From contig JAGVUA010000024.1 of NCBI GenBank assembly GCA_019136545.1, forward strand, positions 1-35,831: a stretch of DNA of 35,831 nucleotides, read 5' to 3'. This document shows positions 6,740-25,238 of this stretch, piece by piece. Every line of letters begins with the position of its first letter. Positions within the stretch are counted from its first letter, which is position 1. Source of the stretch: Betaproteobacteria bacterium (lineage in GTDB: Bacteria > Pseudomonadota > Gammaproteobacteria > Burkholderiales > Rhodocyclaceae). Below the pieces are notes generated by a model that saw nothing but the letters and a program-made list of their open reading frames with translations, was not told where the DNA came from and made no database searches. Both the position numbers and the translations under genes were made by a program.

Positions 6740-7612
6740 TCAATTCAATCGGGCGATGATCTCGTTGGCGAAGCGGCGAATACCTTCCAGTTTCTCTTCC
6801 CGCCCGGTGGTCGCGTCATAAACGTTCCAGGCGCTGGCGCAGATATCGGTGACGCCGATGTCGCGAAGCCGCTTGAAATCGTCGATCGTCTTGGCGTTCG
6901 CGTCGAAGGCATGAATCTCGAAGCTGCGCGTGTCCCGGGTGCCGAACTCGGTGCGGAGGGCATCGAGCTGCCCGATCAGCGACTTCAGCGTGTCGAGGTC
7001 GGTGTTGGCGGAAATCCAGCCGTCGCCGATCCGCGCCGCCCGGGCCAGAGCGGGCTTGGCATGGCCGCCGATCAGGATGGGCACGGGCTGGTCCGGCACC
7101 GGACACAGCTTCATCGGCCCGAAGTCATAGTGTTTGCCGTGATATTCGAAATAGTCGCCGGTCAGCGCGCCGCGAATGATCTCGATGCACTCGTCCATGC
7201 GAGTGCCGCGATCTTCGAACGGCACCCCGTTGTAGACGAAATCCTCTTCCCAGGGACTGATGCCCGCGCCGAGCGCATAGCGGTTGCCGCTCATGACCGC
7301 GAGGGAGGCGATGGACTTCGCCAACAGCAAGGGCTGGCGCACCGGAACCTTGAGCACGCCTGGATAGAAGCGGATTCTGCTGGTGACCGCGGCCATGCCG
7401 GCGATGGCGACGGAAGGTTCGATGACCGGCGCCACGGCGAGAAACTGGCGGACCGCTTCCGTGTCCGCGTAGGGATATTGGGATGCGGTCTTGCGCGGAA
7501 AAAATATGCTGTCGGGCACGGACAGCGCGGACCATCCCGCCGCCTCCGCAACACGGGCAATTTCCAGGTAGTCCTGGTATCCGCCAAGTCCAAGCATCAG
7601 GGTAAAACGCAT
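6740..7612 (-). CDS. LLM-class F420-dependent oxidoreductase
   Basis: Luciferase-like TIM-barrel oxidoreductase of 290 residues, of the branch that commonly uses coenzyme F420 rather than FMN. Visible features are the first strand MRFTLMLGLGGYQDYLEIAR, AAGWSALSVPDS at about 25-34, the core RYALGAGISPWEEDF at 111-125, and PVPILIGGHAKPALARAARIGDGW at about 176-199, typical of F420-binding LLM proteins. The start at 7612 is chosen because GAGGAG lies seven bases upstream; an in-frame ATG five codons earlier contains that ribosome site. It is next to cofD, which supports F420 use. FMN use cannot be ruled out from sequence. It probably oxidises an alcohol or reduces a double bond of the pathway substrate. 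Confidence 0.85.
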   Translation of the reverse strand: MRFTLMLGLGGYQDYLEIARVAEAAGWSALSVPDSIFFPRKTASQYPYADTEAVRQFLAVAPVIEPSVAIAGMAAVTSRIRFYPGVLKVPVRQPLLLAKSIASLAVMSGNRYALGAGISPWEEDFVYNGVPFEDRGTRMDECIEIIRGALTGDYFEYHGKHYDFGPMKLCPVPDQPVPILIGGHAKPALARAARIGDGWISANTDLDTLKSLIGQLDALRTEFGTRDTRSFEIHAFDANAKTIDDFKRLRDIGVTDICASAWNVYDATTGREEKLEGIRRFANEIIARLN

Positions 7613-7657
7613 CGTTCGGCTCCTCATGTTGTCGACGGCGGCACATGCCGTCGGAAA

Positions 7658-8632
7658 TTATCGGCCTTCGGCCTGTTGTCCTGCTTTGGTCAGGGTGCCG
7701 GCGAACCGCAGCACCTCGAGCGCCAGCCGCTCCCGGTCGGCAAGGCTGGTCATCAGGGTTTCCGTCAATAGAACAGGCAATTCGAACTGTTCCGCCAGGT
7801 GGCGGTCGCCGACGTCGACCACCAGGCCGTCGATGACACCCGCATAATGCCGCGCGATCTCCAGCGCCGAAACGGACAGATCGAGTTCCGCCATGATCTT
7901 GGCGGTGGGGCCTTTGACCGCCTTGCCGCCGATCAGCGGCGAGACCGCGACGACCGGGGCCCGGCAGTGGCGCAGCGAGGCTTTCAATGCCGGGATGGCC
8001 AGGATGGGATCGATGCTCAGGTAGGGGTTGGACGGGCAGATCACCACCGCCGCGAGCGCGGGATTCTGGAGTGCCGCGATCGCCTGCGGCACCGCGCGGG
8101 CGCTTTCGGCGCCGTTGAAACGCAGCGCAGTGACGCATGGCGCGCATTGCTGCCGCACGAAGTAATCCTGGAAGGCCAGTTCGCCCGACGCGGTGCCGAC
8201 GAGCGTCGCGACGACGTCGTCGGTCATGGGAATGATGTTTGCCGGAATCTTCAGGCGCTGCGCGATATCCGCGGTGATCCGGCTCAAGGGTTCTCCGCTC
8301 GCCAGTCGACGCGTGCGTTCGACATGCATGGCCAGGTCTCCGTCGCCCAGCCGGAACCAGGTTTCGCCACCCAGCGCGGCGGTAGCGGCCATGAACGTCC
8401 AGGTCTCGTCGCGCCGCCCCCAGCCGGTCAGCGGGTTGACCAGGTTCGCCAGGGTGTACACGGTGGTGTCGATGTCCGGCGCGATGCGCAGGCCAAGATG
8501 GGTGAAGTCGTCGGCAGTATTGACGATCACGGTCAGGCTGTCGGGCGGCAGGACGCGCAGCAGTCCGAGGGAAAGCTTGGCGCCGCCGACGCCGCCTGAC
8601 AGCGAAACGATGGAAGTGGAGGTCATCGACAC
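7658..8632 (-). CDS. cofD: 2-phospho-L-lactate (or related) transferase CofD, coenzyme F420 biosynthesis
   Basis: Transfers the phospho-lactyl (or phosphoglyceryl/PEP-derived) group from its guanylyl-activated form to Fo, making F420-0 or its dehydro form in the cytoplasm. The 324-residue length fits. Diagnostic motifs are SLSGGVGGAKL at 10-20, NTADDFTHLGLRIAPDIDT at about 38-56, GETWFRLGDGDLA at about 89-101, and VAVSPLIGGKAVKGPTAKIM, where the phosphate groups bind. The start is uncertain: GTG at 8632 or ATG at 8626, neither with a strong ribosome site. It lies 45 bases upstream of the LLM oxidoreductase and is probably co-transcribed with it. The other pathway genes (cofC, cofE/fbiB, cofG/cofH or fbiC) are not in the window. 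The phosphoryl donor used cannot be read from the sequence. Confidence 0.95.
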   Translation of the reverse strand: MSMTSTSIVSLSGGVGGAKLSLGLLRVLPPDSLTVIVNTADDFTHLGLRIAPDIDTTVYTLANLVNPLTGWGRRDETWTFMAATAALGGETWFRLGDGDLAMHVERTRRLASGEPLSRITADIAQRLKIPANIIPMTDDVVATLVGTASGELAFQDYFVRQQCAPCVTALRFNGAESARAVPQAIAALQNPALAAVVICPSNPYLSIDPILAIPALKASLRHCRAPVVAVSPLIGGKAVKGPTAKIMAELDLSVSALEIARHYAGVIDGLVVDVGDRHLAEQFELPVLLTETLMTSLADRERLALEVLRFAGTLTKAGQQAEGR

Positions 8633-8722
8633 GAAGGGCTCATCGAAAGAAAAACCGCATTGTCACGTCGAGTCGCGCGATCATCAATATCTGGCTGCCG
8701 GTCGGCGTATCGCCATGGCTGA

Positions 8723-9979: not shown

Positions 9980-10172
9980 GGGGGCGACAGGGCGCATCGA
10001 TGAACGGCAATGCCGAGCCGGCATTTTCCGTCGCGCGGCACCGAAACGCGGTGCGTGGCCAACTATGACCCAGCAAAGGCCGGAACAGATTCGTGGCGTT
10101 GGCGAGCTCGAAAAGCGCGCTTGGATAAACTGCCATCGTGGGCAGATTCCCTATTGATCGAGGATTGGCGAG

Positions 10173-11129
10173 ATGAGCATCGTTCTATGTACCTGGGGCA
10201 GCTTTATCGAGGGCGGTACCGAGGAGGCCCTGACGCTGGCGCGGAAACTGGCGGCCTCGGTGGGTGCCGAACTTCACTGGGCGGTGCTCGGCGCCGCCGC
10301 GACCGAGGCGCCCGCGCTGGCCGAAAGACACGGCGTGACCAGTCTTGATGTCATCGACGATCCAAAGCTTGCCGATTTCCAGCCGGATGCCTTGGTGGAA
10401 GCGCTGGTTCAGTATTGTGGCCAGCTCAAGCCGACCACCATCCTTTTCAACCAGACGGTCGCGGCGCGCCTGATCGCGCCGCGCGTGGCGGGGCGGCTCG
10501 GCGCGGCCGTGGTGATGAACGCCTTTGCCTTCGCCGCCCATGAGGGCGGGCTCGATGTCACGGCGACGGCATTCGGGGGCGACACCCATGTCGTGTATCG
10601 CCTGACGGCGCCGCTCAGCGTGGTTTCCATCGTGACGACCACGGTCGTTGCCGAACCGGCGGCGCAAGCGGCCCCCCCCGCTCGGCGAGCCGTCGCCGTC
10701 GATCTGTCGGGCGTGACAGAGCGTTTCCGGGTGGTCTCGTCGCCCAAGGCGGAGGGGCCGCGCCTGGAGGATGCCCAGATCATCGTGTCTGGCGGCAGAG
10801 GCCTGGGCAGCGCGCAGAACTACGACCTGGTCAAGCAGCTGGCCGATGCCCTGGGCGGCATGTGGGGCGGGTCGCGCGCGATCGTGGATGACGGCTGGAT
10901 CGATTCGTCGCGCCAGGTCGGCCTGACCGGCAAGATCACCCGTCCGGGGTTGTACCTGGCGGCGGGCATTTCAGGGGCGAGCCAGCACATGGCGGGTTGT
11001 TCGGCGGCCAAGACCATCGTGGCCATCAACAAGGACAAGGATGCGTCGATTTATCGTTATGCGCGCTACGGCATCGTGGCCGATTGCCTGGAAGTGCTGC
11101 CCGAGCTGATCAAGGCGGCCAGGGCCTGA
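10173..11129 (+). CDS. etfA: Electron transfer flavoprotein alpha subunit (orphan, no etfB nearby)
   Basis: FAD-carrying subunit of an electron transfer flavoprotein, 318 residues, normal length. Residues 1-170 form the N-terminal domain. A Pro/Ala linker (AQAAPPARRAV) follows, then the FAD-binding C-terminal domain with IIVSGGRGLGS, SRAIVDDGWID, RQVGLTGK, GISGASQHMAG and VAINKDKDASI. An ETF normally needs the beta subunit, usually encoded just upstream, but here the upstream neighbour is a divergent transporter and the downstream one a DUF35 gene. EtfB must therefore be encoded elsewhere or replaced. Electrons would come from an acyl-CoA dehydrogenase (none in the window) and could pass to the Hdr-like membrane protein at 15504. 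A run of eight C lies in the linker. Confidence 0.93.
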   Translation: MSIVLCTWGSFIEGGTEEALTLARKLAASVGAELHWAVLGAAATEAPALAERHGVTSLDVIDDPKLADFQPDALVEALVQYCGQLKPTTILFNQTVAARLIAPRVAGRLGAAVVMNAFAFAAHEGGLDVTATAFGGDTHVVYRLTAPLSVVSIVTTTVVAEPAAQAAPPARRAVAVDLSGVTERFRVVSSPKAEGPRLEDAQIIVSGGRGLGSAQNYDLVKQLADALGGMWGGSRAIVDDGWIDSSRQVGLTGKITRPGLYLAAGISGASQHMAGCSAAKTIVAINKDKDASIYRYARYGIVADCLEVLPELIKAARA

Positions 11130-11628: not shown

Positions 11629-11647
11629 GCGGCCGCGGAGAAAGCAG

Positions 11648-12841
11648 ATGCGAGAAGTCAGTGTTCTGGGCGTGGGCGTGCACCGATTCGGCAAGACCGG
11701 CGACGACGTGGTCGGTACCAAGTCCGTGACCGAACTATGCCGTCACGCGGTACAAATGGCGCTCAAGGATGCCGGCGTATCCTGGGGGCAGATCGAGGCG
11801 GTGGCGGCTGCCAGTTCCCGCTTTTCCGGCGGCAAGGGCTGGGGCCTGAACGGCAACGACGTGGTCGAGGACATCGGCTCGACAGGCATTCCCGTCTATA
11901 ACCTTTCGGCGGGATGCGCCGCGGGGGGCAATGCCTTCAACGTCGGCTATGCGCTGGTGGCCGGCGGCGTTTATGACATAGTCCTGGTGGTCGGCGGCGA
12001 GGTGATGCCCAAGGGCATGATCCAGACCTCGGGCGTCGAGGAAGCCACGGACCCGGAGTTCCTGCGGCAGCGCTGCGTCGGCATGCCGGGCCCCTCCTTC
12101 TGGGCGACGCTGGCGCGTCGGCGCATGTTCGACCACGGCACGACCGAGGAACAATACGCGCGCGTCACGGTCAAGGCGCGCAAGTGCTCGGTCGGCAATC
12201 CGTTTGCGCGCTTCCAGAAGGAAATCGGCATCAATGACGTGCTGGCCTCGCCGTATGTCAGCAATCCCCTGCGGCTGTTCGAGATCTGTCCGGTTTCGAA
12301 TGGCGCGGCAGCGGCCGTGATCTGTTCGGCGGCCAAGGCCAGGCAATTCACGGGCAAGCCGATCACGGTGGCGACCAGCGCGGTGGCGACCTTGGATTTC
12401 AGCGATGCGCTGCCCCGCGGCCTGGCCGGGCCGGTGCCCGCCGGCCCGAGCTTTCACACCGAGGCCAAGGCCGCCGTCATGCGCGCCTTCGAGCAGGCCG
12501 GCGTCGGCCCCCGCGACATCAGCTTCACCGAACTGCAGGACAACACCTGCTATTACGAACTGGCCTTCCCCGAGGAATGGGGCCTGTGCGAACCGGGTGA
12601 AGCGCAAACGCTGCTGGAAAGCGGCCAGACCACGCCGGTCGGACGCATGCCGATCAATCCGTCGGGAGGTTTCGTGTCGTTCGGCGAGGCGACCACGGCG
12701 ATGGGCGTCTGGCAGATCGCCGAGTTGACCTGGCAACTGCGCGGCCAGGCGGGTGCCCGCCAGGTACCGGGCGCCAAGGTCGGCCTGGCGCAAACGAACG
12801 GTTTGGGCGGCAACGCCACGGCGGCGATTCTCAAGCGGTAG
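11648..12841 (+). CDS. SCP2-type thiolase-like protein (lipid-transfer protein family)
   Basis: Thiolase-fold protein of 397 residues. The start at ATG 11648 is supported by GGAG seven bases upstream. The nucleophile region YNLSAGCAAGGNAF keeps a cysteine, Cys90. The usual C-terminal GHPxGATG block is altered: NPSGGFVSFGEATTAMG, so the conserved His is replaced, and the usual HD-F motif reads LQDNTCYYEL. The last glycine-rich block is QTNGLGGNATAAILKR, in place of the usual C-G-G motif. It may therefore be a divergent thiolase or another Claisen/aldol enzyme rather than a standard acetyl-CoA acyltransferase. It pairs with the DUF35 protein directly upstream, the arrangement known for Ltp-type enzymes in actinobacterial sterol catabolism. 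Confidence 0.85.
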   Translation: MREVSVLGVGVHRFGKTGDDVVGTKSVTELCRHAVQMALKDAGVSWGQIEAVAAASSRFSGGKGWGLNGNDVVEDIGSTGIPVYNLSAGCAAGGNAFNVGYALVAGGVYDIVLVVGGEVMPKGMIQTSGVEEATDPEFLRQRCVGMPGPSFWATLARRRMFDHGTTEEQYARVTVKARKCSVGNPFARFQKEIGINDVLASPYVSNPLRLFEICPVSNGAAAAVICSAAKARQFTGKPITVATSAVATLDFSDALPRGLAGPVPAGPSFHTEAKAAVMRAFEQAGVGPRDISFTELQDNTCYYELAFPEEWGLCEPGEAQTLLESGQTTPVGRMPINPSGGFVSFGEATTAMGVWQIAELTWQLRGQAGARQVPGAKVGLAQTNGLGGNATAAILKR

Positions 12842-13466: not shown

Positions 13467-15464
13467 ATGACAAGCATGAAATTCGAGCACTTGTTCGCGC
13501 CATTGCAAGTGGGGCCGATGCGCGTGCCGAACCGTATCTGCGAGACGACCAACACCATCAATTCATCGATGGCGCCGGGATTGATCGACGATCATTTCAT
13601 CGCGCATCACGGCGCCAAGGCGCGGGGCGGCACCGGCTGGATCGGCGGAGAAACCTGGTTGCTCAACTTGCCGCTGCCTCCCGGGGCGCCCGACGAAATA
13701 TCCCTGCGCGGGGGCTTCGGTTGTCGTCAGGCCGCCTACCAGAACCCTGCGTTTGCCGAGGGCTGGAAAAAGTTTACCGACGAGGTGCATCGGCATGGCG
13801 CCGTGGTGGTCGTCCAGTTGACGCATCTGAACGCGCTGTGGTCGCCCTCGCCGGTGCCGGTCGTCGGCGCGCAGGACTACACGCCGCATGTGCTCGGCGA
13901 GGAGGAGATCGAATTCCTCCTGCAGACCTACGCCGATGCCGCGGAAGTGGCGAAGAACACCGGCGCCGACGGCATCGAGATTCATTGCGCGCACGAAACG
14001 GTGGGGTATAGCTTCCTGTCGCCGGTGACCAACCGGCGCACCGACCGCTGGGGCGGCGGCCCCAGGGAGCGCATCCGTTTCGTCGTCGAAGCGCTCAGAC
14101 GCGTCCGCGAGCGCGTGGGCGACGCCCTCGCCCTGGGCATCCGCATCAATGGCCAGGAGTCCCGGCAGGGCGGCTACGACAACATGGAATTGCGCGAGAT
14201 GCTCTATGCCATCGGCGAAACCGGCCTGCTCGACTTCGTCGATATCGATACCGGCCATTGTTGGGGCGCACCTTCGTATGTGCCGTCGTCGTATCACCCG
14301 CATGCCGAGTACCGCGAGACGGGCAAGGCTTCGCGGGCGGACCTCGGCGAGATGGGCAGGAAGATCGCCGTCCTGTTTACCGGCCGCATCAACGACCCGG
14401 TGCTGGCCGAGGAACTGCTCAAGGGCGGTTACTGCGACCTGGTGGGCATGGTGCGCGCCGGCATCGCCGACCCCGATTTCGCCAACAAGGCCCGCGAAGG
14501 CCGTTTGGGCGAGATTCGCCGTTGTATCGGCTGCACGCGTTGCATCGACGAAGCCTCGGAGCCGGTGTGCATTCCCTATACGCCCACCTGCTCGATCAAT
14601 CCGGTGATCGGCAACGAGCTCCGCTGGGAAGCGGAATACCGGCCGGCCGGAACGCCGAAGCGGGTGGTGGTGGTCGGTGGCGGCGCCGCCGGTTGCGAGG
14701 CCGCGCGCATCGCCGCCATGCGCGGACACAAAGTGACCTTGCTGGAGCGGGGCAAGCGCCTGGGCGGGCAGCTCCTGATCGCCGCCAAGGCGCCGGGGCG
14801 GGATTCCTTCGAAGACCAGGTGTATTTCGAGGAAAACGAAATGATCCGCCTGGGCGTCGATGTCAGGCTCGAAGCCCGCGCCGATATCGATTCGATCAAG
14901 GCCCTGGCGCCCGACACCGTGGTCATCGCCACCGGTTCCTCGCCGCGCCTCCCGGAGGAGGTGCCGGGCATCGCCCTGCCGCACGTCGTGCAGGGCTGGG
15001 ATGTGATGCTGGGCAAGGTGTCGGTGGGCGAACGGGTCGCGCTGGTATCCCAGGAGGATTATTACCAAACGCCGTGCGTCGCCGAGTATCTGGCCGAGCG
15101 CGGCAAGAAGGTGGAGATCTTCCACAAGTCGGTTCATTTGGCCACCGAAGTGGCCCGATACTCGATCGGCATGGTGTTGAACCGCATGGAGAAGTTCGGC
15201 GTGACGGTTCATCCCAACCTGATCCTCGCCGAAGTGAAGCCGGAGGCGCTGACGTTCGTATCGTCCTGGGGCGGCAACACCTATCTGAAGCAAGGGTTCG
15301 ACAGCGTCGTGCTGGTCTACGGTTCGGTGCCGCAGTCCGATCTCTACGATCAGTTGAAGGCTGAAGGCAGCGTTCGCGAGGTTTATCTGGCCGGCGGCGC
15401 CTGGGTGCCGCGCCGTCTGGCGGAGGCGACCCGCCACGGCGCCAACATTGGCTTGATGATTTAA
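13467..15464 (+). CDS. NADH:flavin oxidoreductase, 2,4-dienoyl-CoA reductase / BaiCD-like (FMN, 4Fe-4S, FAD)
   Basis: A 665-residue old-yellow-enzyme fusion with a strong Shine-Dalgarno (AAGGAGG). Residues 1-345 form the FMN TIM barrel, with PVTNRRTDRWGG near 186-197 and the phosphate-binding AVLFTGRIND near 301. Cysteines at 353, 356, 359, 368 and 375 supply a 4Fe-4S cluster, and the last, in CSINP, matches FadH. The FAD/NAD(P) domain starts at VVVVGGGAAGCEAA near 400, with VVIATGSSPRLPEE further on. Family members reduce conjugated double bonds of dienoyl-CoA or 3-oxo-4-ene steroid CoA (BaiCD/BaiH). One oddity: where relatives have AHGYLLxxFLSP, this protein has AHETVGYSFLSP, so the usual catalytic Tyr position is Thr and a Tyr sits three residues on. 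Confidence 0.9.
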   Translation: MTSMKFEHLFAPLQVGPMRVPNRICETTNTINSSMAPGLIDDHFIAHHGAKARGGTGWIGGETWLLNLPLPPGAPDEISLRGGFGCRQAAYQNPAFAEGWKKFTDEVHRHGAVVVVQLTHLNALWSPSPVPVVGAQDYTPHVLGEEEIEFLLQTYADAAEVAKNTGADGIEIHCAHETVGYSFLSPVTNRRTDRWGGGPRERIRFVVEALRRVRERVGDALALGIRINGQESRQGGYDNMELREMLYAIGETGLLDFVDIDTGHCWGAPSYVPSSYHPHAEYRETGKASRADLGEMGRKIAVLFTGRINDPVLAEELLKGGYCDLVGMVRAGIADPDFANKAREGRLGEIRRCIGCTRCIDEASEPVCIPYTPTCSINPVIGNELRWEAEYRPAGTPKRVVVVGGGAAGCEAARIAAMRGHKVTLLERGKRLGGQLLIAAKAPGRDSFEDQVYFEENEMIRLGVDVRLEARADIDSIKALAPDTVVIATGSSPRLPEEVPGIALPHVVQGWDVMLGKVSVGERVALVSQEDYYQTPCVAEYLAERGKKVEIFHKSVHLATEVARYSIGMVLNRMEKFGVTVHPNLILAEVKPEALTFVSSWGGNTYLKQGFDSVVLVYGSVPQSDLYDQLKAEGSVREVYLAGGAWVPRRLAEATRHGANIGLMI

Positions 15465-15503: not shown

Positions 15504-17504
15504 GTGAACTTCGGGCTGGCCATGTATTCGATATCCGCCACCAACTATGTGATTCTCACGGCGCTTCTGTGCGGGGCGCTGTTCATGTTTCTGCAGGGGC
15601 TGCGCAAGCGCTGGGCGCTGCTTGCCCGGGGCAGGCCGTGGTTTGGCCAGACCCTTTCCCGCCCAGCGGTGCTGGCGAAGCTGAACTGGCGGGCCTTCCT
15701 GGCCAGGGGCGTGCTGCTGTCGCGCTTGATCAAGCGCCCGGCATCGGGCATCGCTCATCTGCTCTTGTTTTTCGGCGCCATCGTCGAAATCGCCGGACAT
15801 GGCCTGTTCCCCTTGTCCTGGCTGGGCGTGGATGTTTATGACGGCTGGTTCGGCCGCTTCGTCATGGGCGGCGGGCGCGAAGTGGCGGGAATCGCCATGC
15901 TGCTCGGCATCCTGTTCTTGACGCTGCGCAGGACCTTTCCTCCCGAGCGGCTGACGGTGCGCAAGGTTCGGCACGGCTTCCTGTCGATGGAACTCCTGCT
16001 GCTGCTGATCGTGATCGCCGGTTTCGTGGCCGAGGCTTTCCGCTTGACCGACCCCGCCGCGCGCGGGTACGGGGAATTCCTCGGCCGCGGCATGGCGTCG
16101 ATGATGCGCGGGCTGGGCGCGGATCTTCTCGTCACCGGCAACCAGGCCATGTGGTGGCTTCATGGCTTGATGGGCGTGGCATTCATTGCCTTGATCGCCC
16201 GCACGCCGATGTCCCACATGGTATTGGGTCCGGTCAATTCGGCCTTGGCCAACCGACGTTCGGGAATCAACCTGCCGCCCATCGATTTCGAAGCCGAGGA
16301 CGATGCCGGCAAGGAGCCGGTGTTCGGCGCCGCCAAGCTTGCCGACCTGAACCAGAAGCACCTGATCGATTTGTCGACTTGCCTTTGGTGCGGCCGCTGC
16401 CACGAGGCCTGCCCCGCCGCCCAGACCGGCAAGCCGTTATCGCCGAAAAACATCATGGCGACCTGCGCCGAATACCTGGAGCGGAGCGACATCGAAAATG
16501 CCGGCCTGATCGACGCGCTGGGCCAGGATGCCATTTTCAATTGCACGACGTGCGGCGCTTGCATTGAGCAATGCCCCGTGAGCAACAATCCGGCCGAAGT
16601 CGTCCTCGAATTCCGTCGGCATTTCGTGATGGATCGCTCCGAGATGCCGGATACCATGGCCGCCGCCAACCGGAATCTCGAGTCGCGGGGGCACCCGTTC
16701 GTGGGCACGGGCGCCAATCCCGAAGACTGGCGCAAGGGCCTCGACGTTCCCTTGTTCGCGCCTGACGAAACCGAGTACCTTCTCTGGATCGGCTGTTCGG
16801 TGACTTACGAGGAGCGCGCCCAGCAGATCGCCCGAGCCATGGTCAGCATCCTGGAAGCCGCCGGTGTGTCCTACGGCATCCTCGAGGAGGCGCGATGTAC
16901 CGGCGATCCCGCGAAGATGATGGGCAACGAGATGCAGTTCCAGGAAATCGCGACGGGCAACATCGAAGCATTCCAGGAAATGAAAGTCCGGAAAGTGATC
17001 ACCATGTGCGCTCACTGTTTCAACAGTTTCGATCGCTACTACCCGGAGCTCGGCGCAACTTGGGAAACGGTTCCGCATTCGGTGCTGATCGACCGCCTGA
17101 TACAGTCCGGCCGGCTGAAGGTGGCGAGAAACGACGCCGAGAAAATCACTTTTCACGATCCCTGCTATCTGGCCCGCCATAACGACATCGTCGACGAGAC
17201 CCGCAGCGTCGTTGCCGCCGTCGGTCGGCTGATCGAAATGCCGCGCAACCGGAAGGACAGCTTTTGCTGCGGTGCGGGCGGCGGAAATTATTGGGGGGGG
17301 CAGGGCGGCACCGCCAGGATCAGCGACGTGCGTGCCGAGGAGGCGCTGGCGACCGGCGCCGACAAGATCGCAACCTCCTGTTCCTTCTGCCTCTTGATGC
17401 TGACCTCAAGCGCCAGCAAGCACACGGAGGAGCGCAAGGTGTTCGATATTGCCGAATTGGTGGCCGCGGCGCTTCCGCCCGGCCAGGAAGCCGGAGTTCG
17501 ATGA
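15504..17504 (+). CDS. Membrane heterodisulfide-reductase-like Fe-S protein (ETF:quinone oxidoreductase-type)
   Basis: A 666-residue fusion. The N-terminus carries about five or six membrane helices (roughly 14-30, 83-105, 124-141, 161-177, 215-232) with histidines such as His85, His99 and His220 that could bind b-type heme, as in NarI-like subunits. Two 4Fe-4S motifs follow: Cys293-x2-Cys296-x2-Cys299-x3-Cys303 and Cys347-x2-Cys350-x2-Cys353-x3-Cys357. Two CCG domains come next, with GCSVTYEER, MCAHCFNSF, HDPCYLARHN, FCCGAGGGNYW and SCSFCLLM. This layout is known from the ETF:menaquinone oxidoreductases (EMO) of anaerobic degraders. It probably passes electrons from EtfA-linked oxidations to the quinone pool. 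The start may be GTG 15504 or ATG 15522. A run of eight G occurs at about 17293-17300. Confidence 0.88.
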   Translation: MNFGLAMYSISATNYVILTALLCGALFMFLQGLRKRWALLARGRPWFGQTLSRPAVLAKLNWRAFLARGVLLSRLIKRPASGIAHLLLFFGAIVEIAGHGLFPLSWLGVDVYDGWFGRFVMGGGREVAGIAMLLGILFLTLRRTFPPERLTVRKVRHGFLSMELLLLLIVIAGFVAEAFRLTDPAARGYGEFLGRGMASMMRGLGADLLVTGNQAMWWLHGLMGVAFIALIARTPMSHMVLGPVNSALANRRSGINLPPIDFEAEDDAGKEPVFGAAKLADLNQKHLIDLSTCLWCGRCHEACPAAQTGKPLSPKNIMATCAEYLERSDIENAGLIDALGQDAIFNCTTCGACIEQCPVSNNPAEVVLEFRRHFVMDRSEMPDTMAAANRNLESRGHPFVGTGANPEDWRKGLDVPLFAPDETEYLLWIGCSVTYEERAQQIARAMVSILEAAGVSYGILEEARCTGDPAKMMGNEMQFQEIATGNIEAFQEMKVRKVITMCAHCFNSFDRYYPELGATWETVPHSVLIDRLIQSGRLKVARNDAEKITFHDPCYLARHNDIVDETRSVVAAVGRLIEMPRNRKDSFCCGAGGGNYWGGQGGTARISDVRAEEALATGADKIATSCSFCLLMLTSSASKHTEERKVFDIAELVAAALPPGQEAGVR

Positions 17505-19952: not shown

Positions 19953-21161
19953 ATGTCCAAGGCACTCGAAGGCATTCGCGTCGTCGATCTCACCGTCTGG
20001 TTTCAAGGGCCGGTGGCCGCGCAGCATCTCGCCGACTTCGGCGCCGATGTGATCAAGGTCGAGCGACCGCAGGGCGGCGATCAAGGGCGCGGCGTCCGCA
20101 GCATCAAGTCGCTCGAAGTGGGCGACTGGAACCAGTATTTCCTGGTCATCAATCGCAACAAGAAGAGCATGGCCATCGATCTCAAGAAAGCCGAGGGACA
20201 GGAAATCCTTTACCGGCTGATCGAAAAGTCCGACGTGTTCCTGTCCAATCTGTCGCCGGAGCTGTTGGCCAACTGGAATCTTTCCTACGACAAGCTTGCC
20301 TCGATCAATCCTCGCCTCGTTTATGCCACCAACACGGGTTACGGACGTTTCAGCACGGCCTCGAAGCCTTCGTTCGACATGACGGTGCAGGCCCTGACCG
20401 GCGCCATGGCCCGACTGGGCGAACCCGGCCAGCCGCCCATCTACATGGGCATGGGCTCGGGCGACGCGTTCGGCGGCATCATGTCGGCGCTCGGCATCAT
20501 GCTGGCGCTCTATCAGCGCCTCCGCACGGGCAAGGGACAGTATCTCGACGCTTCGCTCTACGGCGCGCAGCTGTACCTGGCCGCGCCGCACCTGCAATCC
20601 TTCCTTGCCGGTCATCGCGAAAGCGCCCTGCAGCAATCGCGCAAGCAGGTGAAGAATCCGCTCTGGAACCTGTATCCGACCCGCGGCAAGTGGGTCTATG
20701 TCTGCGAGCCGAACCGCGACGACCGCTTTGCCGCCGTCGGGCGCGCGCTGGCCGCCGCCGGGATGCTGCGCGACCCGCGCTTTGCGGATGCCGCCGGACG
20801 CGCGACGCACAACGAAGCCCTGATCGAGGTGATCGAGAACGCCACCCGGCAACTCGGTCACGAGGAGATCATGGCGTCGTTCAAGCGGGAAGGCGTGATC
20901 GCCAGCCCCATCAACAATCTGGCGGATGTCATTCGCGACGAGCAGGCATGGCGGAACCGCTACTTCATGAAGACCTACTGCGAGGAAGTGGACCGCGATG
21001 TCGATGTTCGCGGCATGCCCATCACTTTGTCCAAGACCCCTGGCGAACTGCGCTGTCTGGGACCGCAATTGGGCCAGGACACCGAGCTGCTGATGATGGA
21101 ATTGCTCGACTACCCGTGGGAAGAAATCGAGGCCATGAAAGCCAAGGGGGCAATCCCGTGA
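19953..21161 (+). CDS. CaiB/BaiF-family CoA-transferase, catalytic subunit
   Basis: A 402-residue class III (formyl-CoA transferase-like) CoA-transferase with a strong ribosome site (GGAGGAAATC). It begins with GIRVVDLTVWFQGPVAAQHL, followed by GADVIKVERP, NRNKKSMAIDL and VYATNTGYGRF. The catalytic aspartate is Asp171 in GMGSGDAFGGIMSALG, which is intact. It very likely forms a complex with the preceding paralogue, which lacks this residue. Class III enzymes move CoA between an acyl-CoA such as succinyl-CoA and a free acid through a mixed anhydride at that Asp. The natural acid is unknown. Confidence 0.92.
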   Translation: MSKALEGIRVVDLTVWFQGPVAAQHLADFGADVIKVERPQGGDQGRGVRSIKSLEVGDWNQYFLVINRNKKSMAIDLKKAEGQEILYRLIEKSDVFLSNLSPELLANWNLSYDKLASINPRLVYATNTGYGRFSTASKPSFDMTVQALTGAMARLGEPGQPPIYMGMGSGDAFGGIMSALGIMLALYQRLRTGKGQYLDASLYGAQLYLAAPHLQSFLAGHRESALQQSRKQVKNPLWNLYPTRGKWVYVCEPNRDDRFAAVGRALAAAGMLRDPRFADAAGRATHNEALIEVIENATRQLGHEEIMASFKREGVIASPINNLADVIRDEQAWRNRYFMKTYCEEVDRDVDVRGMPITLSKTPGELRCLGPQLGQDTELLMMELLDYPWEEIEAMKAKGAIP

Positions 21162-21195: not shown

Positions 21196-22110
21196 ATGAG
21201 CTGGACCGACTGGAGCACCGTGACCGGCGATGGCTTGGATGCGTTCAAGGAAATCATTTACGAGAAAAAACAGCACGCGGCCCTGGGCGGCGGCGTCGCC
21301 CGGGTGTCCTTGAACAAGCCCGAAAAAATGAACACCCTGACCATGTCGACGGTCGAGGAGATGTTCCGGGCGTTCTACGATGCCAACCACGATCCCGCGA
21401 TCGGCGTGATCATCGTCGCGGCGCGCGGCAAGCATTTCGGCGCCGGTGGCGACGTCGATTGGGAGCGCTGGGGGCTGCGGGAAGCTTTCTACAACCGCTA
21501 TCCGCACAATCGGCTGGTGCGCATGTCGCGCAAGCCGATCATCGCGCAAGTACAAGGCTACTGCATCGCCGGCCACAACCACATGGCCTATTGCTGCGAC
21601 TTCACCATCGCCGCCGACAATGCCGTCTTCGGCCAGGCGGGCCCGCGGGTTTCTTCTCCCGCCGATGGTTTTTTCGTGCCCTATCTCACCAAGGTCGTCG
21701 GCGCCAAGAAGGCCCGCGAGATGTGGATGCTCTGCCGCAAGTACAAGGCGGATCAGGCGCTGGCCATGGGCCTGATCAACACCGTGGTGCCGCTCGATCA
21801 ACTCGAAGCCGAGGTGGACCGGTGGTGTGAGGAACTGCTGGCCGTCAGTCCGGGCTGCCTCGAGGTATTGAAGGCGGCCTTCGATCAGGAAATGGACGGC
21901 TACAAGGAATCCTGCGTCACCTCGGCGGCGCTTTATCCGGACTGGTTCGACATGCCCGAGGGCAAGGAAGGCGGCGCCGCCTTCGTGGAGAAGCGCAAGG
22001 CCGAGTTCTGGGCCATACGCCGGCGCGAGGCCGAGGCGCGCAGCCAGTTGCTTGCCGAGTATGAAGATGCGCAAGCCGAGCGCGCGCGCAAGGCCGAGGA
22101 CGATCAATAG
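21196..22110 (+). CDS. MenB/BadI-like crotonase (possible ring-forming or ring-cleaving CoA enzyme)
   Basis: Crotonase of 304 residues. Its core is closest in pattern to 1,4-dihydroxy-2-naphthoyl-CoA synthase MenB and the ring-cleaving BadI: FGQAGPRVSSPADGFFVPYL near 145-164, KKAREMWMLCRKYKADQALAMGLINTVVPL near 171-200, and the C-terminal EGGAAFVEKRKAEFW. The oxyanion stretch is HFGAGGDVDW near 80-89. A charged helical tail (RRREAEARSQLLAEYEDAQAERARKAEDD) extends beyond the family core. Members of this branch do Dieckmann-type C-C chemistry instead of simple hydration, so ring opening of a 2-oxo-cycloalkyl-CoA is a reasonable guess. It follows the CoA-transferase pair 34 bases on, with GCAAGGAGAG as ribosome site. 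Confidence 0.85.
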   Translation: MSWTDWSTVTGDGLDAFKEIIYEKKQHAALGGGVARVSLNKPEKMNTLTMSTVEEMFRAFYDANHDPAIGVIIVAARGKHFGAGGDVDWERWGLREAFYNRYPHNRLVRMSRKPIIAQVQGYCIAGHNHMAYCCDFTIAADNAVFGQAGPRVSSPADGFFVPYLTKVVGAKKAREMWMLCRKYKADQALAMGLINTVVPLDQLEAEVDRWCEELLAVSPGCLEVLKAAFDQEMDGYKESCVTSAALYPDWFDMPEGKEGGAAFVEKRKAEFWAIRRREAEARSQLLAEYEDAQAERARKAEDDQ

Positions 22111-22119
22111 GCGTTTGTC

Positions 22120-23295
22120 ATGGAGCGCGATGTGATCAAGGACAAGGCCTGCATCGTCGGCATCGGCGAGACGGCGGTTTGCCGCAAACCCGGCTCCGGC
22201 CTGAGCGAAATGGCCTTGCAACTCAAGGCCGCCGTCGCGGCCATCGAGGATGCAGGCCTGAAGGCCAGGCAAATCGACGGCATCCTGCCATTCCCGAATC
22301 TGGGCAAGGCCGAGGCCTATGCCGCCAGCCTCGGCTGCGTCGACCTGCGCTTCGCCGCGACGATCAACATGGGCGGAGCCATGCCGGTGGCGGCGCTGCG
22401 CGTCGCCGCCATGGCGGTCGCCTCCGGCGCCGCCAACCATGTTCTGGTGCCGGCGGGCTGGAACGGCTTTTCGGGGGTACGGGTGCGCGAGACGGCGGCC
22501 AACGATTCCGACGCGATTCCCGGCGCGGCCATCGCCCGCGATTTCTACATGCCGTTCGGCCTGAATGCGCCGCCGCAATGGTATGCGTTGATGGCGCGGC
22601 GCCACATGCACGAGTACGGCACCCGTGCCGAACATCTCGGCGCAGTGGCATTGGCCATGCGCAAGCATGCCCAGTTGAATCCCGGTGCCCTCATGCATGG
22701 CAAGCCGTTGACAATGGAAGCCTATCTGGCCTCGCCGATGATCACCGACCCCTATCGGCTGCTCGACTGCTGCCTGGAAACCGATGGCGCCGCGGCCTAC
22801 GTGGTGACCACCGCCGAGCGCGCGCGCGATCTCGGCAAGACGCCGATCTACATCATGGGGGCCGCCGCGGGGCAGCCGTATCCCGCCGATGAAATCATGA
22901 ATCGTCCCGAGTTCCATCGCATCGGTCTCACCACCGCGGCGCCAGAGGCGTTCGCGATGGCCGGCGTGCGACCGGGAGATGTGGATTTTGCCCAGATCTA
23001 CGACTGCTTCACGTTCGAGGTCATTCAGCAGATCGAGGAAGCCGGTTTCTGCGCGCGCGGCGAAGGTGGGGCGTTCGTCGAAAATGGCGGCATCGAATTG
23101 GGTGGTCGGCTGCCGGTCAACACGCATGGCGGCTTGTTGTCGCAAGCGCATCTCCTGGGCCTCGGCCACGTCGTCGAGGCCGTTCGGCAACTGCGGGGCG
23201 AAGCCGGAGAACGCCAGGTCAAGGATGCCGAAATCGGCGTCGTCACCGGCTGGGGCGATTTTGGCGACGGCAGTATCGCCATCCTGAGGCGGTAA
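22120..23295 (+). CDS. Thiolase-like aldolase, Ltp2 type
   Basis: SCP2-thiolase-fold protein of 391 residues. The thiolase nucleophile is missing: the stretch reads INMGGAMPVAAL, with Gly86 where a Cys is expected. The HD-F motif becomes YDCFTFEVIQQIEEAG, placing a tyrosine at 294, and the last catalytic block is NTHGGLLSQAHLLGLGH. Loss of Cys and gain of Tyr are hallmarks of Ltp2, the retro-aldolase that works with a DUF35 protein in steroid side-chain removal. From memory, Ltp2 has a second active Tyr near position 344, where this protein has His344. It is followed by the matching DUF35 gene. I infer retro-aldol cleavage of a beta-hydroxyacyl-CoA. Confidence 0.85.
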   Translation: MERDVIKDKACIVGIGETAVCRKPGSGLSEMALQLKAAVAAIEDAGLKARQIDGILPFPNLGKAEAYAASLGCVDLRFAATINMGGAMPVAALRVAAMAVASGAANHVLVPAGWNGFSGVRVRETAANDSDAIPGAAIARDFYMPFGLNAPPQWYALMARRHMHEYGTRAEHLGAVALAMRKHAQLNPGALMHGKPLTMEAYLASPMITDPYRLLDCCLETDGAAAYVVTTAERARDLGKTPIYIMGAAAGQPYPADEIMNRPEFHRIGLTTAAPEAFAMAGVRPGDVDFAQIYDCFTFEVIQQIEEAGFCARGEGGAFVENGGIELGGRLPVNTHGGLLSQAHLLGLGHVVEAVRQLRGEAGERQVKDAEIGVVTGWGDFGDGSIAILRR

Positions 23296-23329
23296 GCATG
23301 ACGATTGACTTGGGCAGGAGGAAAGCGAG

Positions 23330-23737
23330 ATGCCAATGATTCCCAAGCCGCTACCGGTCCTGGCAGGACTCGTCGGCGAGTACTACGGCTGGTGTCGCCA
23401 GGGCGAATTGCGCTTTCAGCGCTGCCGCCAATGCGGCGCATTTCGGCATGTGCCGCGCGACATCTGCGCCGCATGCAGTTCCTTCGACTGGGACTGGGTC
23501 AAGTCGAGCGGGCGCGGCGCGGTTTACACCTGGACGGTGGTGGCCCGCGCCCTGCACCCGGGGTTTGCCGGCGATGAGCCCTATGCGCCGGTGGTGGTCG
23601 AAATGGAAGAAGGTGTGCGGGTGTTGAGCCAGGTGCGGGACTGCCCGCCGGATCAGCTGCAGGTGGGCATGCCGGTGCGGGTCGAATTCGTCGCCGTCGA
23701 TGACCAGGTGACGCTGCCCTATTTCTGCCGCGCCTGA
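23330..23737 (+). CDS. DUF35 zinc-ribbon/OB-fold protein, partner of the Ltp2-like aldolase
   Basis: Compact 135-residue DUF35 protein with a strong ribosome site (CAGGAGG). The zinc ribbon is Cys32-x2-Cys35 and Cys46-x2-Cys49, followed by the OB-fold with GAVYTWTVVARALHPGF, PYAPVVVEMEEGVRVLSQV and VRVEFVAVDDQVTLPYF. The ordering thiolase-fold gene then DUF35 is the reverse of the pair at 11143-12841. In Ltp2-ChsH2 the DUF35 protein anchors the aldolase to the hydratase, so a similar aldolase complex is expected here. A crotonase gene lies 32 bases further on. Confidence 0.88.
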   Translation: MPMIPKPLPVLAGLVGEYYGWCRQGELRFQRCRQCGAFRHVPRDICAACSSFDWDWVKSSGRGAVYTWTVVARALHPGFAGDEPYAPVVVEMEEGVRVLSQVRDCPPDQLQVGMPVRVEFVAVDDQVTLPYFCRA

Positions 23738-23769
23738 GCAGGCGCGGTGCATTCGAAAGGAACGAACCG

Positions 23770-24549
23770 ATGGCTTTGAATCTGCCGGAAACTTTCACCT
23801 ATGAGAAGCGTGGCCACGTTGCGGTGATGACGCTCAATCGGCCGCAGGCGATGAACGCGCTGACCAAGGACATGATGCTGGGACTGGAAGCGGCCGTCGA
23901 GGACTTCAACGGCGATCCCGACCTGTGGGTGGCGATTTTTACCGCCACCGGCGACAAGGCCTTCTGCACCGGCCTCGATCTCAAGGTGGCGTTGCCGGCG
24001 TTGAACGAGGGCGACGACATGGGCTATGCCGATCCGGCCACCCGGCCTTTCCACAAGGTCTACAAGCCGGTCATCTCGGCCATCAACGGTATCTGCGTCG
24101 CCGGCGGCCTCGAGTTCATGCTGGGCACGGACATCCGCATCGCCGCCGAACACGCCACTTTCGGCTTGACGGAAGTGCGCTGGGCGGTGATTCCGGCGGG
24201 CGGTTCGCACGTGCGCCTCCCCAGGCAGATTCCCTGGGCCGTCGCCATGGAGATGCTGATGACCGGCAAGACCATCGACGCCAAGCGCGCCTACGACATC
24301 GGCCTCATCAATAAAGTGGTGCCAGCGGCTAATCTGACGAGTGAAGCGCTTGCCATGGCCGCCAAGATATGCGAAAACGGCCCCTTGGCGGTTCGTACCG
24401 CCAAGGAAATCGCCGTGCGCGCGCAGAACCTCGAACCGGCCTTCGTGCTCGAAAAGACCATGTCGGCTCGCGTCTTCGCTTCCGAAGACGCCCGCGAGGG
24501 GCCGCGCGCATTCGCGGAGAAACGTAAACCTGTCTATAAGGGAAAGTAA
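23770..24549 (+). CDS. Enoyl-CoA hydratase (crotonase family)
   Basis: Canonical 259-residue crotonase. It shows VMTLNRPQAMNALTKDM near 19-35, oxyanion segment ATGDKAFCTGLDLKV, and GICVAGGLEFMLGTDIRIAAEHATFGLTEVRW with both candidate catalytic glutamates (the GGLE Glu and the TEVRW Glu), then AVIPAGGSHVRLPR. Both acids present favours a true hydratase adding water to an enoyl-CoA. The C-terminus FAEKRKPVYKGK is usual. The ribosome site GAAAGGAAC lies just upstream of the start. It would supply the beta-hydroxyacyl-CoA that the Ltp2-like aldolase could cleave, and its stop lies five bases before npdG. Confidence 0.92.
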   Translation: MALNLPETFTYEKRGHVAVMTLNRPQAMNALTKDMMLGLEAAVEDFNGDPDLWVAIFTATGDKAFCTGLDLKVALPALNEGDDMGYADPATRPFHKVYKPVISAINGICVAGGLEFMLGTDIRIAAEHATFGLTEVRWAVIPAGGSHVRLPRQIPWAVAMEMLMTGKTIDAKRAYDIGLINKVVPAANLTSEALAMAAKICENGPLAVRTAKEIAVRAQNLEPAFVLEKTMSARVFASEDAREGPRAFAEKRKPVYKGK

Positions 24550-24554
24550 ATCAG

Positions 24555-25238
24555 ATGAGCGAAGCAAGACCGATCATTGCCATTCTTGGTGGAACCGGCG
24601 ACCTGGGTACCGGCCTGGCGCGACGTTGGGCGCAGGCCGGTTATACGGTCATCATTGGCTCCCGGACCCAGGAAAAGGCCGAGGCGGCGGTTGCCGATCT
24701 GTCGAAGGTGATGAGCGAGCGCGGAGTGAAGGATATCTCGGTCCGGGCGATGGACAATCTTTCAGCGGCCCAGGCGGCGAATATCGTCGCCATGACCGTG
24801 CCCTTCAGCCACCAGGCCAGCACGCTCGAGTCGGTGAAGAGCGCTCTGGCCGGCAAGATCCTGATCGACGTGACGGTACCGCTGGTTCCGCCGAAAGTCG
24901 CCAGAGTCCAGCTGCCGCCGCAAGGCTCGGCGGGACAGATTGCCCAGGCGCTGCTCGGCGACGAGGTGAAGGTGGTTTCGGCGTTCCAGAACGTCGCCGC
25001 TCACCACCTGCAGGAAGGCCAAGGTCTCGAGTGCGATGTGCTGGTCTGCGGCGACAGCAAGGAGGCGCGGGCCGAGGTCATCAAGCTGGTCGAGGCGGCG
25101 GGCATGCGCGGCTTCCATGCCGGCAGCATCGCCAACGCGGCGGCCGTCGAGGCCATGACCTCGGTGCTGATCTTCATCAACAAGCAGTACAACTGCCACG
25201 CCGGCATCCGTGTCACCGGCATCGGGTCGGGCGCATGA
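24555..25238 (+). CDS. npdG: NADPH-dependent F420 reductase (NpdG/Fno)
   Basis: Hydride-transfer enzyme linking the NADP and F420 pools, 227 residues, as expected for Fno/NpdG. The N-terminal Rossmann motif is ILGGTGDLGTGLARRWAQAG. NADP selectivity residues of archaeal Fno (Thr9, Ser31, Arg32, Lys36 as I recall) line up with Thr14, Ser36, Arg37 and Lys41 in IIGSRTQEK. Further family signatures are LIDVTVPL, VVSAFQNVAAHHLQ and CDVLVCGD, and the C-terminal ANAAAVEAMTSVLIFINKQY. It sits at the end of the rightward operon, five bases after a hydratase gene. It implies that F420 is reduced or re-oxidised during the pathway, supplying the Ddn-like and LLM enzymes. Confidence 0.94.
   Translation: MSEARPIIAILGGTGDLGTGLARRWAQAGYTVIIGSRTQEKAEAAVADLSKVMSERGVKDISVRAMDNLSAAQAANIVAMTVPFSHQASTLESVKSALAGKILIDVTVPLVPPKVARVQLPPQGSAGQIAQALLGDEVKVVSAFQNVAAHHLQEGQGLECDVLVCGDSKEARAEVIKLVEAAGMRGFHAGSIANAAAVEAMTSVLIFINKQYNCHAGIRVTGIGSGA

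What the first reader, a model, noticed from the sequence alone, without database searches (positions are those of the whole stretch)
6740..25238. A coenzyme F420 module inside a betaproteobacterial catabolic island
Four genes point to F420: cofD (7658-8632), an LLM-class oxidoreductase (6740-7612), a Ddn-like reductase (12918-13436) and an NADPH:F420 reductase (24555-25238). F420 is best known from actinobacteria and methanogens; it is sparsely described in betaproteobacteria (Paraburkholderia rhizoxinica is a known producer). Here a biosynthesis gene, a recycling gene and two likely users are interleaved with CoA-ester genes, so deazaflavin redox chemistry may be integral to the pathway. The motifs are seen directly; the pathway role is inference.
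Basis: partly seen in the sequence, partly recalled or inferred. Interest (0 to 1): 0.85.

Follow-up and report, generated by a model that had tools for sequence, protein, structure and literature searches.

The report
F420-linked ring-degradation gene island
A betaproteobacterium carries a gene island that probably breaks down an unknown ring compound, with genes that make, recharge and probably use the rare redox cofactor F420 placed among the degradation genes, and related islands occur in other bacteria, one of which is held in a culture collection.

Summary
In a same-family genome cofD lies between cofE and cofC; here it is missing there (22-bp gap), and the only cofD found in the genome is the island one. 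A betaproteobacterial MAG has the homologous island with a complete F420 gene set inside it; Aromatoleum diolicum has homologous genes and the F420 operon on one 55.7-kb contig. A Ddn-family gene lies within 600 bp of the OYE in 21 of 22 close OYE orthologues, from three phyla. LLM homologues occurred only in cofD-positive genomes of the order sample (7 of 7). CofD and NpdG group with same-family relatives, in trees without actinobacterial rows. F420 supply is unknown for 20 of the 22 loci. Substrate and cofactor use are inferred. New variant of a known kind.

The parts
7658..8632 (-). cofD, transferase of F420 biosynthesis; the only cofD found in the genome
   Evidence: TIGR01819 282.8 > 257.45; single match in G000; groups with G912 and MAG bin-321 CofD, support 89/92
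6740..7612 (-). TIGR03619-type LLM oxidoreductase, probably F420-dependent, 45 bp downstream of cofD
   Evidence: TIGR03619 180.0 > 166.9; homologues only in cofD+ genomes of the sample, 7 of 7; 65% to the LLM beside fbiC in L157; fold search does not separate F420 from FMN
4767..6218 (-). acyl-CoA ligase (AMP-forming); start not certain
   Evidence: PF00501, PF13193; 67-70% to a gene on the A. diolicum contig, read in two pieces because two fetched stretches meet inside it
4184..4714 (-). SnoaL_4/NTF2-like protein
   Evidence: PF13577 84.2 bits; 72% to the gene after LLM in L157, 58% to one next to LLM in L255
8723..10024 (-). MFS transporter, EntS-like
   Evidence: PF05977 176.6; below the EntS cut-off (116.3 against 324)
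10173..11129 (+). EtfA-like electron-transfer flavoprotein subunit
   Evidence: PF00766, PF01012; 65% in L153, 75% in L165
11143..11628 (+). ChsH2-type (DUF35) zinc-ribbon/OB-fold partner of ThiolA
   Evidence: PF01796 60.6 > 27.1 and PF12172 27.1 > 23.2
11648..12841 (+). SCP2-type thiolase/aldolase, here ThiolA (searched as 11645-12841)
   Evidence: PRK06059 383.9, cut-off 424; 77-85% in L153, L165, L166
12918..13436 (+). Ddn-like F420H2-dependent reductase (FDOR-A type, recalled label)
   Evidence: PF04075 110.3 > 22; Ddn 3r5l E 3e-28; Ddn-family gene within 600 bp of the OYE in 21 of 22 close orthologous loci
13467..15464 (+). OYE-family reductase of the 2-naphthoyl-CoA reductase / dienoyl-CoA reductase type
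   Evidence: PF00724 161.9 and Pyr_redox_2; best solved relative NCR 6qkg E 7e-71; TIGR03997 462.8, below cut-off 793
15504..17504 (+). Fe-S protein with CCG domains, Hdr/EtfD-like (recalled label)
   Evidence: PF02754 two stretches, Fer4; 68% in L153
17508..18656 (-). long protein with C-terminal enoyl-CoA hydratase domain
   Evidence: PF00378 83.4 bits; 45-53% homologues in L154, L155, L156, L159, L167, L249, L250, L255
18747..19940 (+). class III CoA-transferase subunit 1
   Evidence: PF02515 248.4 > 23.3; best solved relative a succinate-HMG CoA-transferase, E 2e-33; benzylsuccinate CoA-transferase 9fn0 E 1e-23
19953..21161 (+). class III CoA-transferase subunit 2
   Evidence: class III family hits below cut-offs; next to subunit 1 in L157 and near it in A. 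diolicum
21196..22110 (+). MenB/BadI-like crotonase, possible ring-opening hydrolase
   Evidence: PRK07396 227.8 (cut-off 380), BadI 210.2 (cut-off 467.6); MenB structures E 1e-57; 81-89% in nine related islands
22120..23295 (+). Ltp2-like thiolase/retro-aldolase, here ThiolB
   Evidence: PRK07855 351.7, cut-off 469; lipid-transfer protein 6ok1 E 1.7e-78
23330..23737 (+). ChsH2-type (DUF35) zinc-ribbon/OB-fold partner of ThiolB
   Evidence: PF01796 81.4 > 27.1 and PF12172 33.9 > 23.2; beside ThiolB in 7 of 22 close loci, plus a weak pair in L169
23770..24549 (+). EchA19-like enoyl-CoA hydratase
   Evidence: EchA19 286.5, cut-off 400
24555..25238 (+). NpdG/FNO, NADPH:F420 oxidoreductase
   Evidence: TIGR01915 201.4 > 149.8; FNO 5n2i E 1.9e-43; 82% to island NpdG of L157, support 98/94

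Best explanation
The window holds an F420-linked island for CoA-dependent degradation of a cyclic compound. Shown by sequence: the genome encodes FbiC (cut by a contig end), CofC, CofD and CofE, with the only CofD found in the island; NpdG, Ddn-like and LLM proteins lie among a CoA ligase, CoA-transferases, thiolases, hydratases and an NCR-like OYE. Inferred: the acid is activated by the ligase or CoA-transferase; NpdG moves hydride from NADPH to F420; the Ddn-like protein, working beside the OYE, uses F420H2 to reduce an electron-poor C=C bond of a ring intermediate; the LLM does a second F420 hydride transfer; the OYE exchanges electrons with the EtfA/Fe-S branch; the MenB/BadI-like enzyme opens a ring; the two thiolase-ChsH2-type pairs and the hydratases shorten the chain. 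The substrate is unknown; a steroid-like or other polycyclic isoprenoid acid is my leading guess (about 0.3).
For: Curated cut-offs; CofE, CofC, fused CofG-CofH in the genome. G873 (same family) has, in one stretch, counterparts of genes on C80 and C23, with cofE-cofD-cofC together; C80 and C23 meet inside one G873 gene, which ties both contigs to one genome and shows cofD missing from its usual place here. L157 has CofE, CofD and a CofC-FbiC fusion, all above cut-off, between Ddn-OYE and LLM-SnoaL. A. diolicum: F420 operon, LLM 58%, ligase 67-70%, CoA block, Ddn 78%, OYE 83% on one contig. Ddn family within 600 bp of OYE in 21 of 22 loci. LLM homologues only in cofD+ genomes of the sample, 7 of 7, while generic OYE hits do not track cofD (4 of 54, 4.2 expected). 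NpdG and CofD trees. Ltp2-like thiolase with ChsH2-type partners, MenB-like crotonase, NCR-like OYE.
Against: NpdG was seen in only 1 of the 22 close loci, and cof genes inside the held flanks only in L157; counting A. diolicum, F420 supply is unknown for 20 of 22. 0 of 5 congeners have cofD (they are 80-87% complete). Further OYE relatives at 47-64% mostly lack an adjacent Ddn gene (2 of 20 have one). FbiC is cut at a contig end and the rest of CofH was not found (where the fragment scored 327.6, below the 374.1 cut-off; 396.2 when translated). C80 is GC-poor, 57.7%, at the edge of the genome's range. The LLM model matches F420 and FMN enzymes alike. I recognised no etfB in the window. F420 itself has not been measured.
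Confidence: 0.72

Rival explanations
1. The F420 genes and the catabolic genes are neighbours by accident: a transfer hot spot gathered them, and F420 serves other enzymes elsewhere in the genome.
For: 11 LLM-family (PF00296) matches lie in the genome, 10 outside the window; cofE-cofC sit beside a Mo-hydroxylase and fbiC near another LLM; F420 operons without island genes in the stretches read are common in the order and family.
Against: Ddn-OYE closeness in 21 of 22 loci across phyla; full F420 set inside the L157 island; co-location on the A. diolicum contig; the only cofD found in the genome is in the island.
Confidence: 0.15
2. The LLM and Ddn-like proteins use FMN or another ligand, so the island's chemistry is flavin-based and cofD/npdG are passengers.
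For: Foldseek ranks FMN enzymes such as SfnG next to F420 enzymes for the LLM model; some FDOR-A kin bind fatty acids (recalled).
Against: LLM homologues occur only in cofD+ genomes of the sample; FMN-type LLM models score far below TIGR03619, e.g. SfnG 56.4; the Ddn-like protein shares the GRK[S/T]G and P-x-W-x-x-N blocks with solved Ddn, invariant in the 15 aligned rows apart from the S/T difference to Ddn.
Confidence: 0.1
3. The island is a variant of the anaerobic 2,3-seco steroid pathway.
For: Mo-hydroxylase genes of the xanthine oxidase type lie near the OYE in L152, L156, L158, L159, L171; AtcABC of that pathway is of that family, and its ring-cleaving hydrolase was called unidentified in 2019 (PMC5554518 and PMC6678751, passages); Ltp2-like, ChsH2-like and EchA19-like genes; Steroidobacteraceae and Sterolibacterium among carriers.
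Against: No AtcABC sequence was compared; the nearest OYE structure is an aryl-CoA reductase; the passages read on that pathway name no F420 step.
Confidence: 0.2
4. The island degrades an aryl-CoA or naphthoate-like compound reductively, with the OYE as ring reductase.
For: NCR is the nearest solved relative of the OYE (242.8 bits); BadI/MenB-like hydrolase; a benzylsuccinate CoA-transferase is among the CoA-transferase relatives.
Against: 2,4-dienoyl-CoA reductase and trimethylamine dehydrogenase score only somewhat lower (200.4 and 194 bits), so the family does not fix the substrate.
Confidence: 0.2

Closest known systems
Actinobacterial F420-dependent xenobiotic degradation (picrate npd genes; FDOR aflatoxin reductases)
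   Same: NpdG regenerates F420H2; LLM or FDOR enzymes reduce electron-poor rings or enones (recalled; FDOR papers PMC3288000 and PMC3034190 seen only as listing with start of abstract)
   Different: Here the carriers found are mainly Pseudomonadota and Myxococcota, the likely users sit in a CoA-thioester cluster, and CofD/NpdG group with same-family relatives in trees without actinobacterial rows
3PG-F420 of Mycetohabitans/Paraburkholderia rhizoxinica
   Same: Betaproteobacterial F420 biosynthesis
   Different: CofC has Gly at the diagnostic position here (all 42 rows compared, 41 distinct), so the 2-PL/PEP type is expected; that organism is reported to lack genes like known F420-dependent enzymes (PMC8498797 section 23)
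Compact proteobacterial F420 operons, e.g. Aromatoleum aromaticum EbN1 plasmid 2, Sinorhizobium meliloti pSymA, Paraburkholderia sp. PGU19 plasmid
   Same: Same biosynthetic genes and npdG; PGU19 also has a 47% LLM and NTF2-like genes nearby
   Different: In G000 the genes lie on three contigs, probably two sites, with cofD and npdG in the catabolic island
2-naphthoyl-CoA reductase (NCR, 6qkg)
   Same: Closest solved relative of the OYE, residues 4-664
   Different: No F420 partner is known for NCR (recalled); the substrate here is untested
Ltp2-ChsH2 steroid aldolase (6ok1; that it is this complex is recalled, names only 'Lipid-transfer protein')
   Same: ThiolB is closest to this chain and stands beside a ChsH2-type protein
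   Different: Falls below the PRK07855 lipid-transfer cut-off (351.7 against 469)

Membership tests
F420-producing organism (complete pathway) | Fo synthase CofG+CofH or FbiC | tested here: met
   CofG 470.4 > 213.35; CofH 396.2 > 374.1 although cut at model position 233 of 345 by the contig end; whole-protein model PRK09234 917, below 1018, as expected for a cut gene
F420-producing organism (complete pathway) | CofC, CofD and CofE | tested here: met
   CofE TIGR01916 260.3 > 180.65 and CofC TIGR03552 127.1 > 105; CofD 282.8 > 257.45
F420-producing organism (complete pathway) | F420 detectable in cells | not testable with these tools
   needs culture and LC-MS
3PG-F420 type | Ser/Thr at the CofC position of Mrhiz S162 (PMC8764529, passages) | tested here: not met
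   Gly in this genome's CofC and in all 42 rows compared
Ddn / PF04075 F420H2-dependent reductase | curated score and blocks shared with solved Ddn | tested here: met
   110.3 > 22; GRK[S/T]G and P-x-W-x-x-N shared; which residues touch F420 was not checked
Ddn / PF04075 F420H2-dependent reductase | oxidises F420H2 | not testable with these tools
   enzyme assay needed
TIGR03619 F420-dependent LLM | curated score | tested here: met
   180.0 > 166.9
TIGR03619 F420-dependent LLM | binds F420 rather than FMN | tested here: inconclusive
   co-occurrence 7 of 7 favours F420; fold search mixes both
NpdG/FNO | curated score over the whole protein | tested here: met
   201.4 > 149.8, residues 8-220
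2-naphthoyl-CoA reductase | sequence relation over full length | tested here: met
   E 7e-71 over residues 4-664
2-naphthoyl-CoA reductase | aryl-CoA substrate | not testable with these tools
   enzyme assay needed
mycofactocin OYE 2 / BaiCD | curated cut-off | tested here: not met
   462.8 against 793.15; 316.8 against 825
anaerobic 2,3-seco steroid pathway | AtcABC orthologue | not tested
   Mo-hydroxylases on C23 and near some islands belong to the broad family only

The most novel reading that the evidence does not exclude
An undescribed F420-dependent ring-degradation pathway, built around a Ddn-like/OYE reductase pair acting on CoA esters, has spread by horizontal transfer through Pseudomonadota, Myxococcota and Thermodesulfobacteriota, at least once carrying its own complete F420 gene set, and in this genome the island's cofD has become the cell's only one.
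Probability: 0.45. Interest if true: 0.82.

Novelty: new variant of a known kind. Interest (0 to 1): 0.68.

Why it matters
A 2021 review states that no F420H2-dependent reductase or F420-reducing dehydrogenase had been investigated experimentally in non-actinobacterial bacterial producers, and asks why Proteobacteria make F420 (PMC8498797, section 23 and outlook passage). Since then structures of an F420-dependent glucose-6-phosphate dehydrogenase of Thermomicrobium have been released (2025), so the field has moved, but outside Proteobacteria. This island gives a concrete answer to test: F420 as hydride carrier for a CoA-dependent degradation pathway. A. diolicum 22Lin, available from a culture collection (PMC7825797, passages), carries the F420 operon and homologous genes on one contig, so gene deletion, metabolite and enzyme tests are within reach. 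My ten paper searches (open-licence PubMed Central papers only, listings capped) showed no title or abstract start that I recognised as describing this association.

Tried and rejected
Actinobacterial origin of the F420 genes: no sign for CofD and NpdG (no actinobacterial rows were included); no Ddn or LLM tree was built. Contamination: unlikely for the window (PilT/PilU gene; composition) and for C23/C80 by synteny with G873. 3PG-F420: not supported by the CofC residue. Plasmid records as a source of close islands: no match to OYE, CofD, MenB-like, Ddn, LLM, ThiolB, ThiolA or the Fe-S protein reached 60% identity; the product names in the neighbourhoods read showed no homologous island. Order and phylum samples: no listed OYE match above 37% outside this genome's own protein. 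LLM structure to decide F420 or FMN: inconclusive. Promoter scan of 8500-10300: no sigma-70-like site. Steroid 2,3-seco pathway: kept as a rival only.

Rows left out of the 22-locus counts: the 20 loci L170, L172-L174, L176, L178-L192 with OYE at 47-64% identity (a Ddn-family gene within 600 bp in 2 of 20, L174 and L176; 5.7 kb away in L186); L227 (A. evansii, OYE in two ORF pieces); and L194-L226 and L228, which matched at 27-35%. In the cofD counts, 5 of 37 order matches and 9 of 39 family matches, all weak and partial, were set aside. In the composition test one of 20 reference pieces was too short and left out.

Full report
OBSERVATION. Nearest solved chains are Ddn (3r5l), FNO (5n2i), CofD (3c3d) and, weakly, F420-dependent Mer (8qpl).

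HOST. The window is C100:1-35831 of a 3.40-Mb, 162-contig genome, 94.8% complete, 2.05% contaminated. The PilT/PilU-type gene at the far end is 79-81% identical to its match in four of five congeners and 59-75% in the seven other family members sampled; the fifth congener gave only paralogues. Window composition fits the genome (65.5% GC, distance 1.61; 18 of 19 reference pieces 1.75-4.02, one at 7.0), as does C23 (63.0%, 1.95); C80 is at the edge (57.7%, 3.36). Pieces of other genomes lie at 3.0-8.5 in the same test, so it separates only weakly. The family also contains Aromatoleum: handle G945 is the A. diolicum contig by length and exact overlap.

F420 GENES IN THE GENOME. CofE and CofC lie 22 bp apart on C23 (L009 2878-3666 and 3689-4390), followed by Mo-hydroxylase genes; a fused CofG-CofH runs off the end of C80 (L010 8149-10131). 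CofD is found only in the window. In G873, same family, one stretch holds LLM2 (89% to C80), an NrfD-like protein (61%), an Fe-S protein (88%), CofE (79%), CofD (51%), CofC (52%) and CoxM/S/L-like genes (72-85%); one G873 ORF matches the open end of C80 (89%) and the open end of C23 (87%) over successive parts. So C80 and C23 probably adjoin, and the F420 genes of G000 probably lie at two sites: that block, and the island. G873 has cofD between cofE and cofC; G000 does not. The window CofD is not close to that of G873: in the tree it sits with G912 and the L157 island (89/92) inside a 16-row family clade (96/92), while G873 lies outside on a long branch whose place is unsure. Replacement of the operon's cofD by an island copy is my inference.

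DISTRIBUTION. cofD-family matches occur in 37 of 399 sampled genomes of the order; I set aside 5 weak partial ones, leaving 32 (26 over the cut-off). In 24 of the 31 stretches read around them at least three of fbiC, npdG, cofE, cofD, cofC stand together. In the family it is 39 of 365, of which 9 weak ones were set aside, leaving 30; 0 of 5 congeners have it. So F420 is patchy here. LLM homologues at E <= 1e-25 occur in 7 of 399 genomes, all cofD-positive; leaving out this genome, 6 of 6 fall among the 31 cofD genomes of 398, P 1.4e-7, while generic OYE hits do not track cofD (4 of 54, 4.2 expected). These genomes are related, so the P value is a guide only.

RELATED ISLANDS. A scan of the species-genome collection with the OYE gave 77 loci. 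Twenty-two carry an OYE at 71-83% identity (L152-L169, L171, L175, L177, L193; L158 and L171 are from one MAG, L171 is partial; recount). A Ddn-family gene lies within 600 bp of the OYE in 21 of 22 (57-78% identity in 20, 40% in L177; none found in L163); an LLM within 1 kb in 11 of 22 and within the held flank in 14 of 22; NpdG in 1 of 22. At least three of the six genes CoAT1, CoAT2, MenB-like, ThiolB, its ChsH2-type partner and ECH3 are present in 9 of 22 (L152, L154-L157, L159, L163, L167, L175). Flanks are cut at 10 kb or less, so these are lower bounds. Among the 20 further OYE relatives at 47-64% a Ddn-family gene is adjacent in only 2, so the pair belongs to the closer clade. The OYE tree (quick method, SH-aLRT only) puts the window in a 21-row clade at 100 that mixes Pseudomonadota with Myxococcota and a Geobacter MAG, which suggests transfer, if the MAG bins are right.

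TWO KEY RELATIVES. MAG bin-321 (L157): NpdG, ECH3, ChsH2-type partner, ThiolB, MenB-like, CoAT2, CoAT1 on one strand; Ddn, OYE, CofE, CofD, a CofC-FbiC fusion, LLM, SnoaL on the other. CofE 267.6, CofD 293.3, CofC 151.6, CofG 502.6 and CofH 549.2 all exceed their cut-offs. The window keeps the order CofD, LLM, SnoaL, with a ligase between the last two. A. diolicum 22Lin: on one 55.7-kb contig fbiC, cofC, cofD, cofE, npdG (6.6-12.0 kb), LLM 58% (14.6 kb), ligase 67-70% (19.3-20.8 kb), CoA block with MenB-like 86% and ThiolB 84% (34.8-40.6 kb), Ddn 78% and OYE 83% (43.7-46.3 kb), Mo-hydroxylase (51.8-55.6 kb). Its NpdG (56%) is not of the window type; the window NpdG groups with L157 (98/94), then A. 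tolulyticum and Azoarcus Aa7 (99/98). A 58-59% LLM and a 58% SnoaL stand a few kb from cof genes in G792 (L255), and a 47% LLM about 5 kb from an F420 operon on a Paraburkholderia PGU19 plasmid.

COFACTOR. The CofC residue diagnostic for 3-PG (PMC8764529, passages) is Gly in all 42 CofC rows compared, 41 distinct (alignment to the solved 3-PG enzyme), so ordinary F420 is expected. The Ddn-like family keeps invariant PTLLL, GRKSG and SLAGYD blocks over 15 rows, the window included; of these the GRK-x-G block, and P-x-W-x-x-N, are shared with solved Ddn. For the LLM an AlphaFold2 model (pLDDT 87) matches F420 and FMN enzymes alike: inconclusive.

MECHANISM. Shown: gene content, order and relatedness. 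Inferred: NpdG charges F420 with NADPH; the Ddn-like protein, beside an OYE closest to 2-naphthoyl-CoA reductase, reduces an electron-poor double bond; the LLM performs another F420 hydride transfer; EtfA and the Hdr-like Fe-S protein link the flavoproteins to the quinone pool; the MenB/BadI-like crotonase opens a ring; the Ltp2-like and PRK06059-like thiolases with ChsH2-type partners cleave side chains. Substrate: open. Steroid-like hints are the Ltp2, ChsH2 and EchA19 kinships, a PRK07798 ligase and PRK05864 hydratase above cut-off beside the island in Sterolibacterium sp. (L165), and steroid-named carriers. Aryl-CoA hints are NCR and BadI.

VERDICT. The finding is real and its interpretation supported, with the pathway role still inference. 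The parts are known families; the association, its spread and the cofD displacement are what is new. New variant of a known kind, interest 0.68.

Noticed in passing
window 643-667, 12857-12881, 34770-34794 (+), 26775-26799 (-); elsewhere in the genome: The 11-mer CGGCTGACTTT is the most over-represented 11-mer in 349 kb of this genome (23 copies, 0.2 expected), with each base of GGCG at a fixed distance upstream in 21-23 of 23; 11 pieces of other genomes hold 1 copy in all. It looks like a dispersed or uptake-type repeat.
   Followed up: partly
L157 13788-16802: CofC and FbiC are read as one 1004-residue frame, a CofC-CofG-CofH fusion, all parts above cut-off.
   Followed up: no
G000 contig C149 (L137, L138): Two tandem LLM genes at 51-53% and 40-44% to the window LLM: further members of the same clade.
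   Followed up: no
window 10173-11129: EtfA-like gene without an EtfB recognised in the window (Pfam run on the main ORFs, showed the ETF domain only here; not all ORFs were run); the partner may be elsewhere.
   Followed up: partly
L152, L153, L154, L157 (script family f25): A protein family that is an amidohydrolase by Pfam (PF04909, tested for the L157 member) follows ECH3 or NpdG in L152, L154 and L157; I did not see it in the window.
   Followed up: no
Aromatoleum aromaticum EbN1 plasmid 2 (L114): Complete F420 operon on a conjugative plasmid with several transposase genes around it.
   Followed up: no
L227, Aromatoleum evansii: OYE orthologue appears as ORF pieces of 86% and 65%; not examined further.
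   Followed up: no
window 25786-26625: Protein with a PEP-CTERM sorting motif just outside the island.
   Followed up: no
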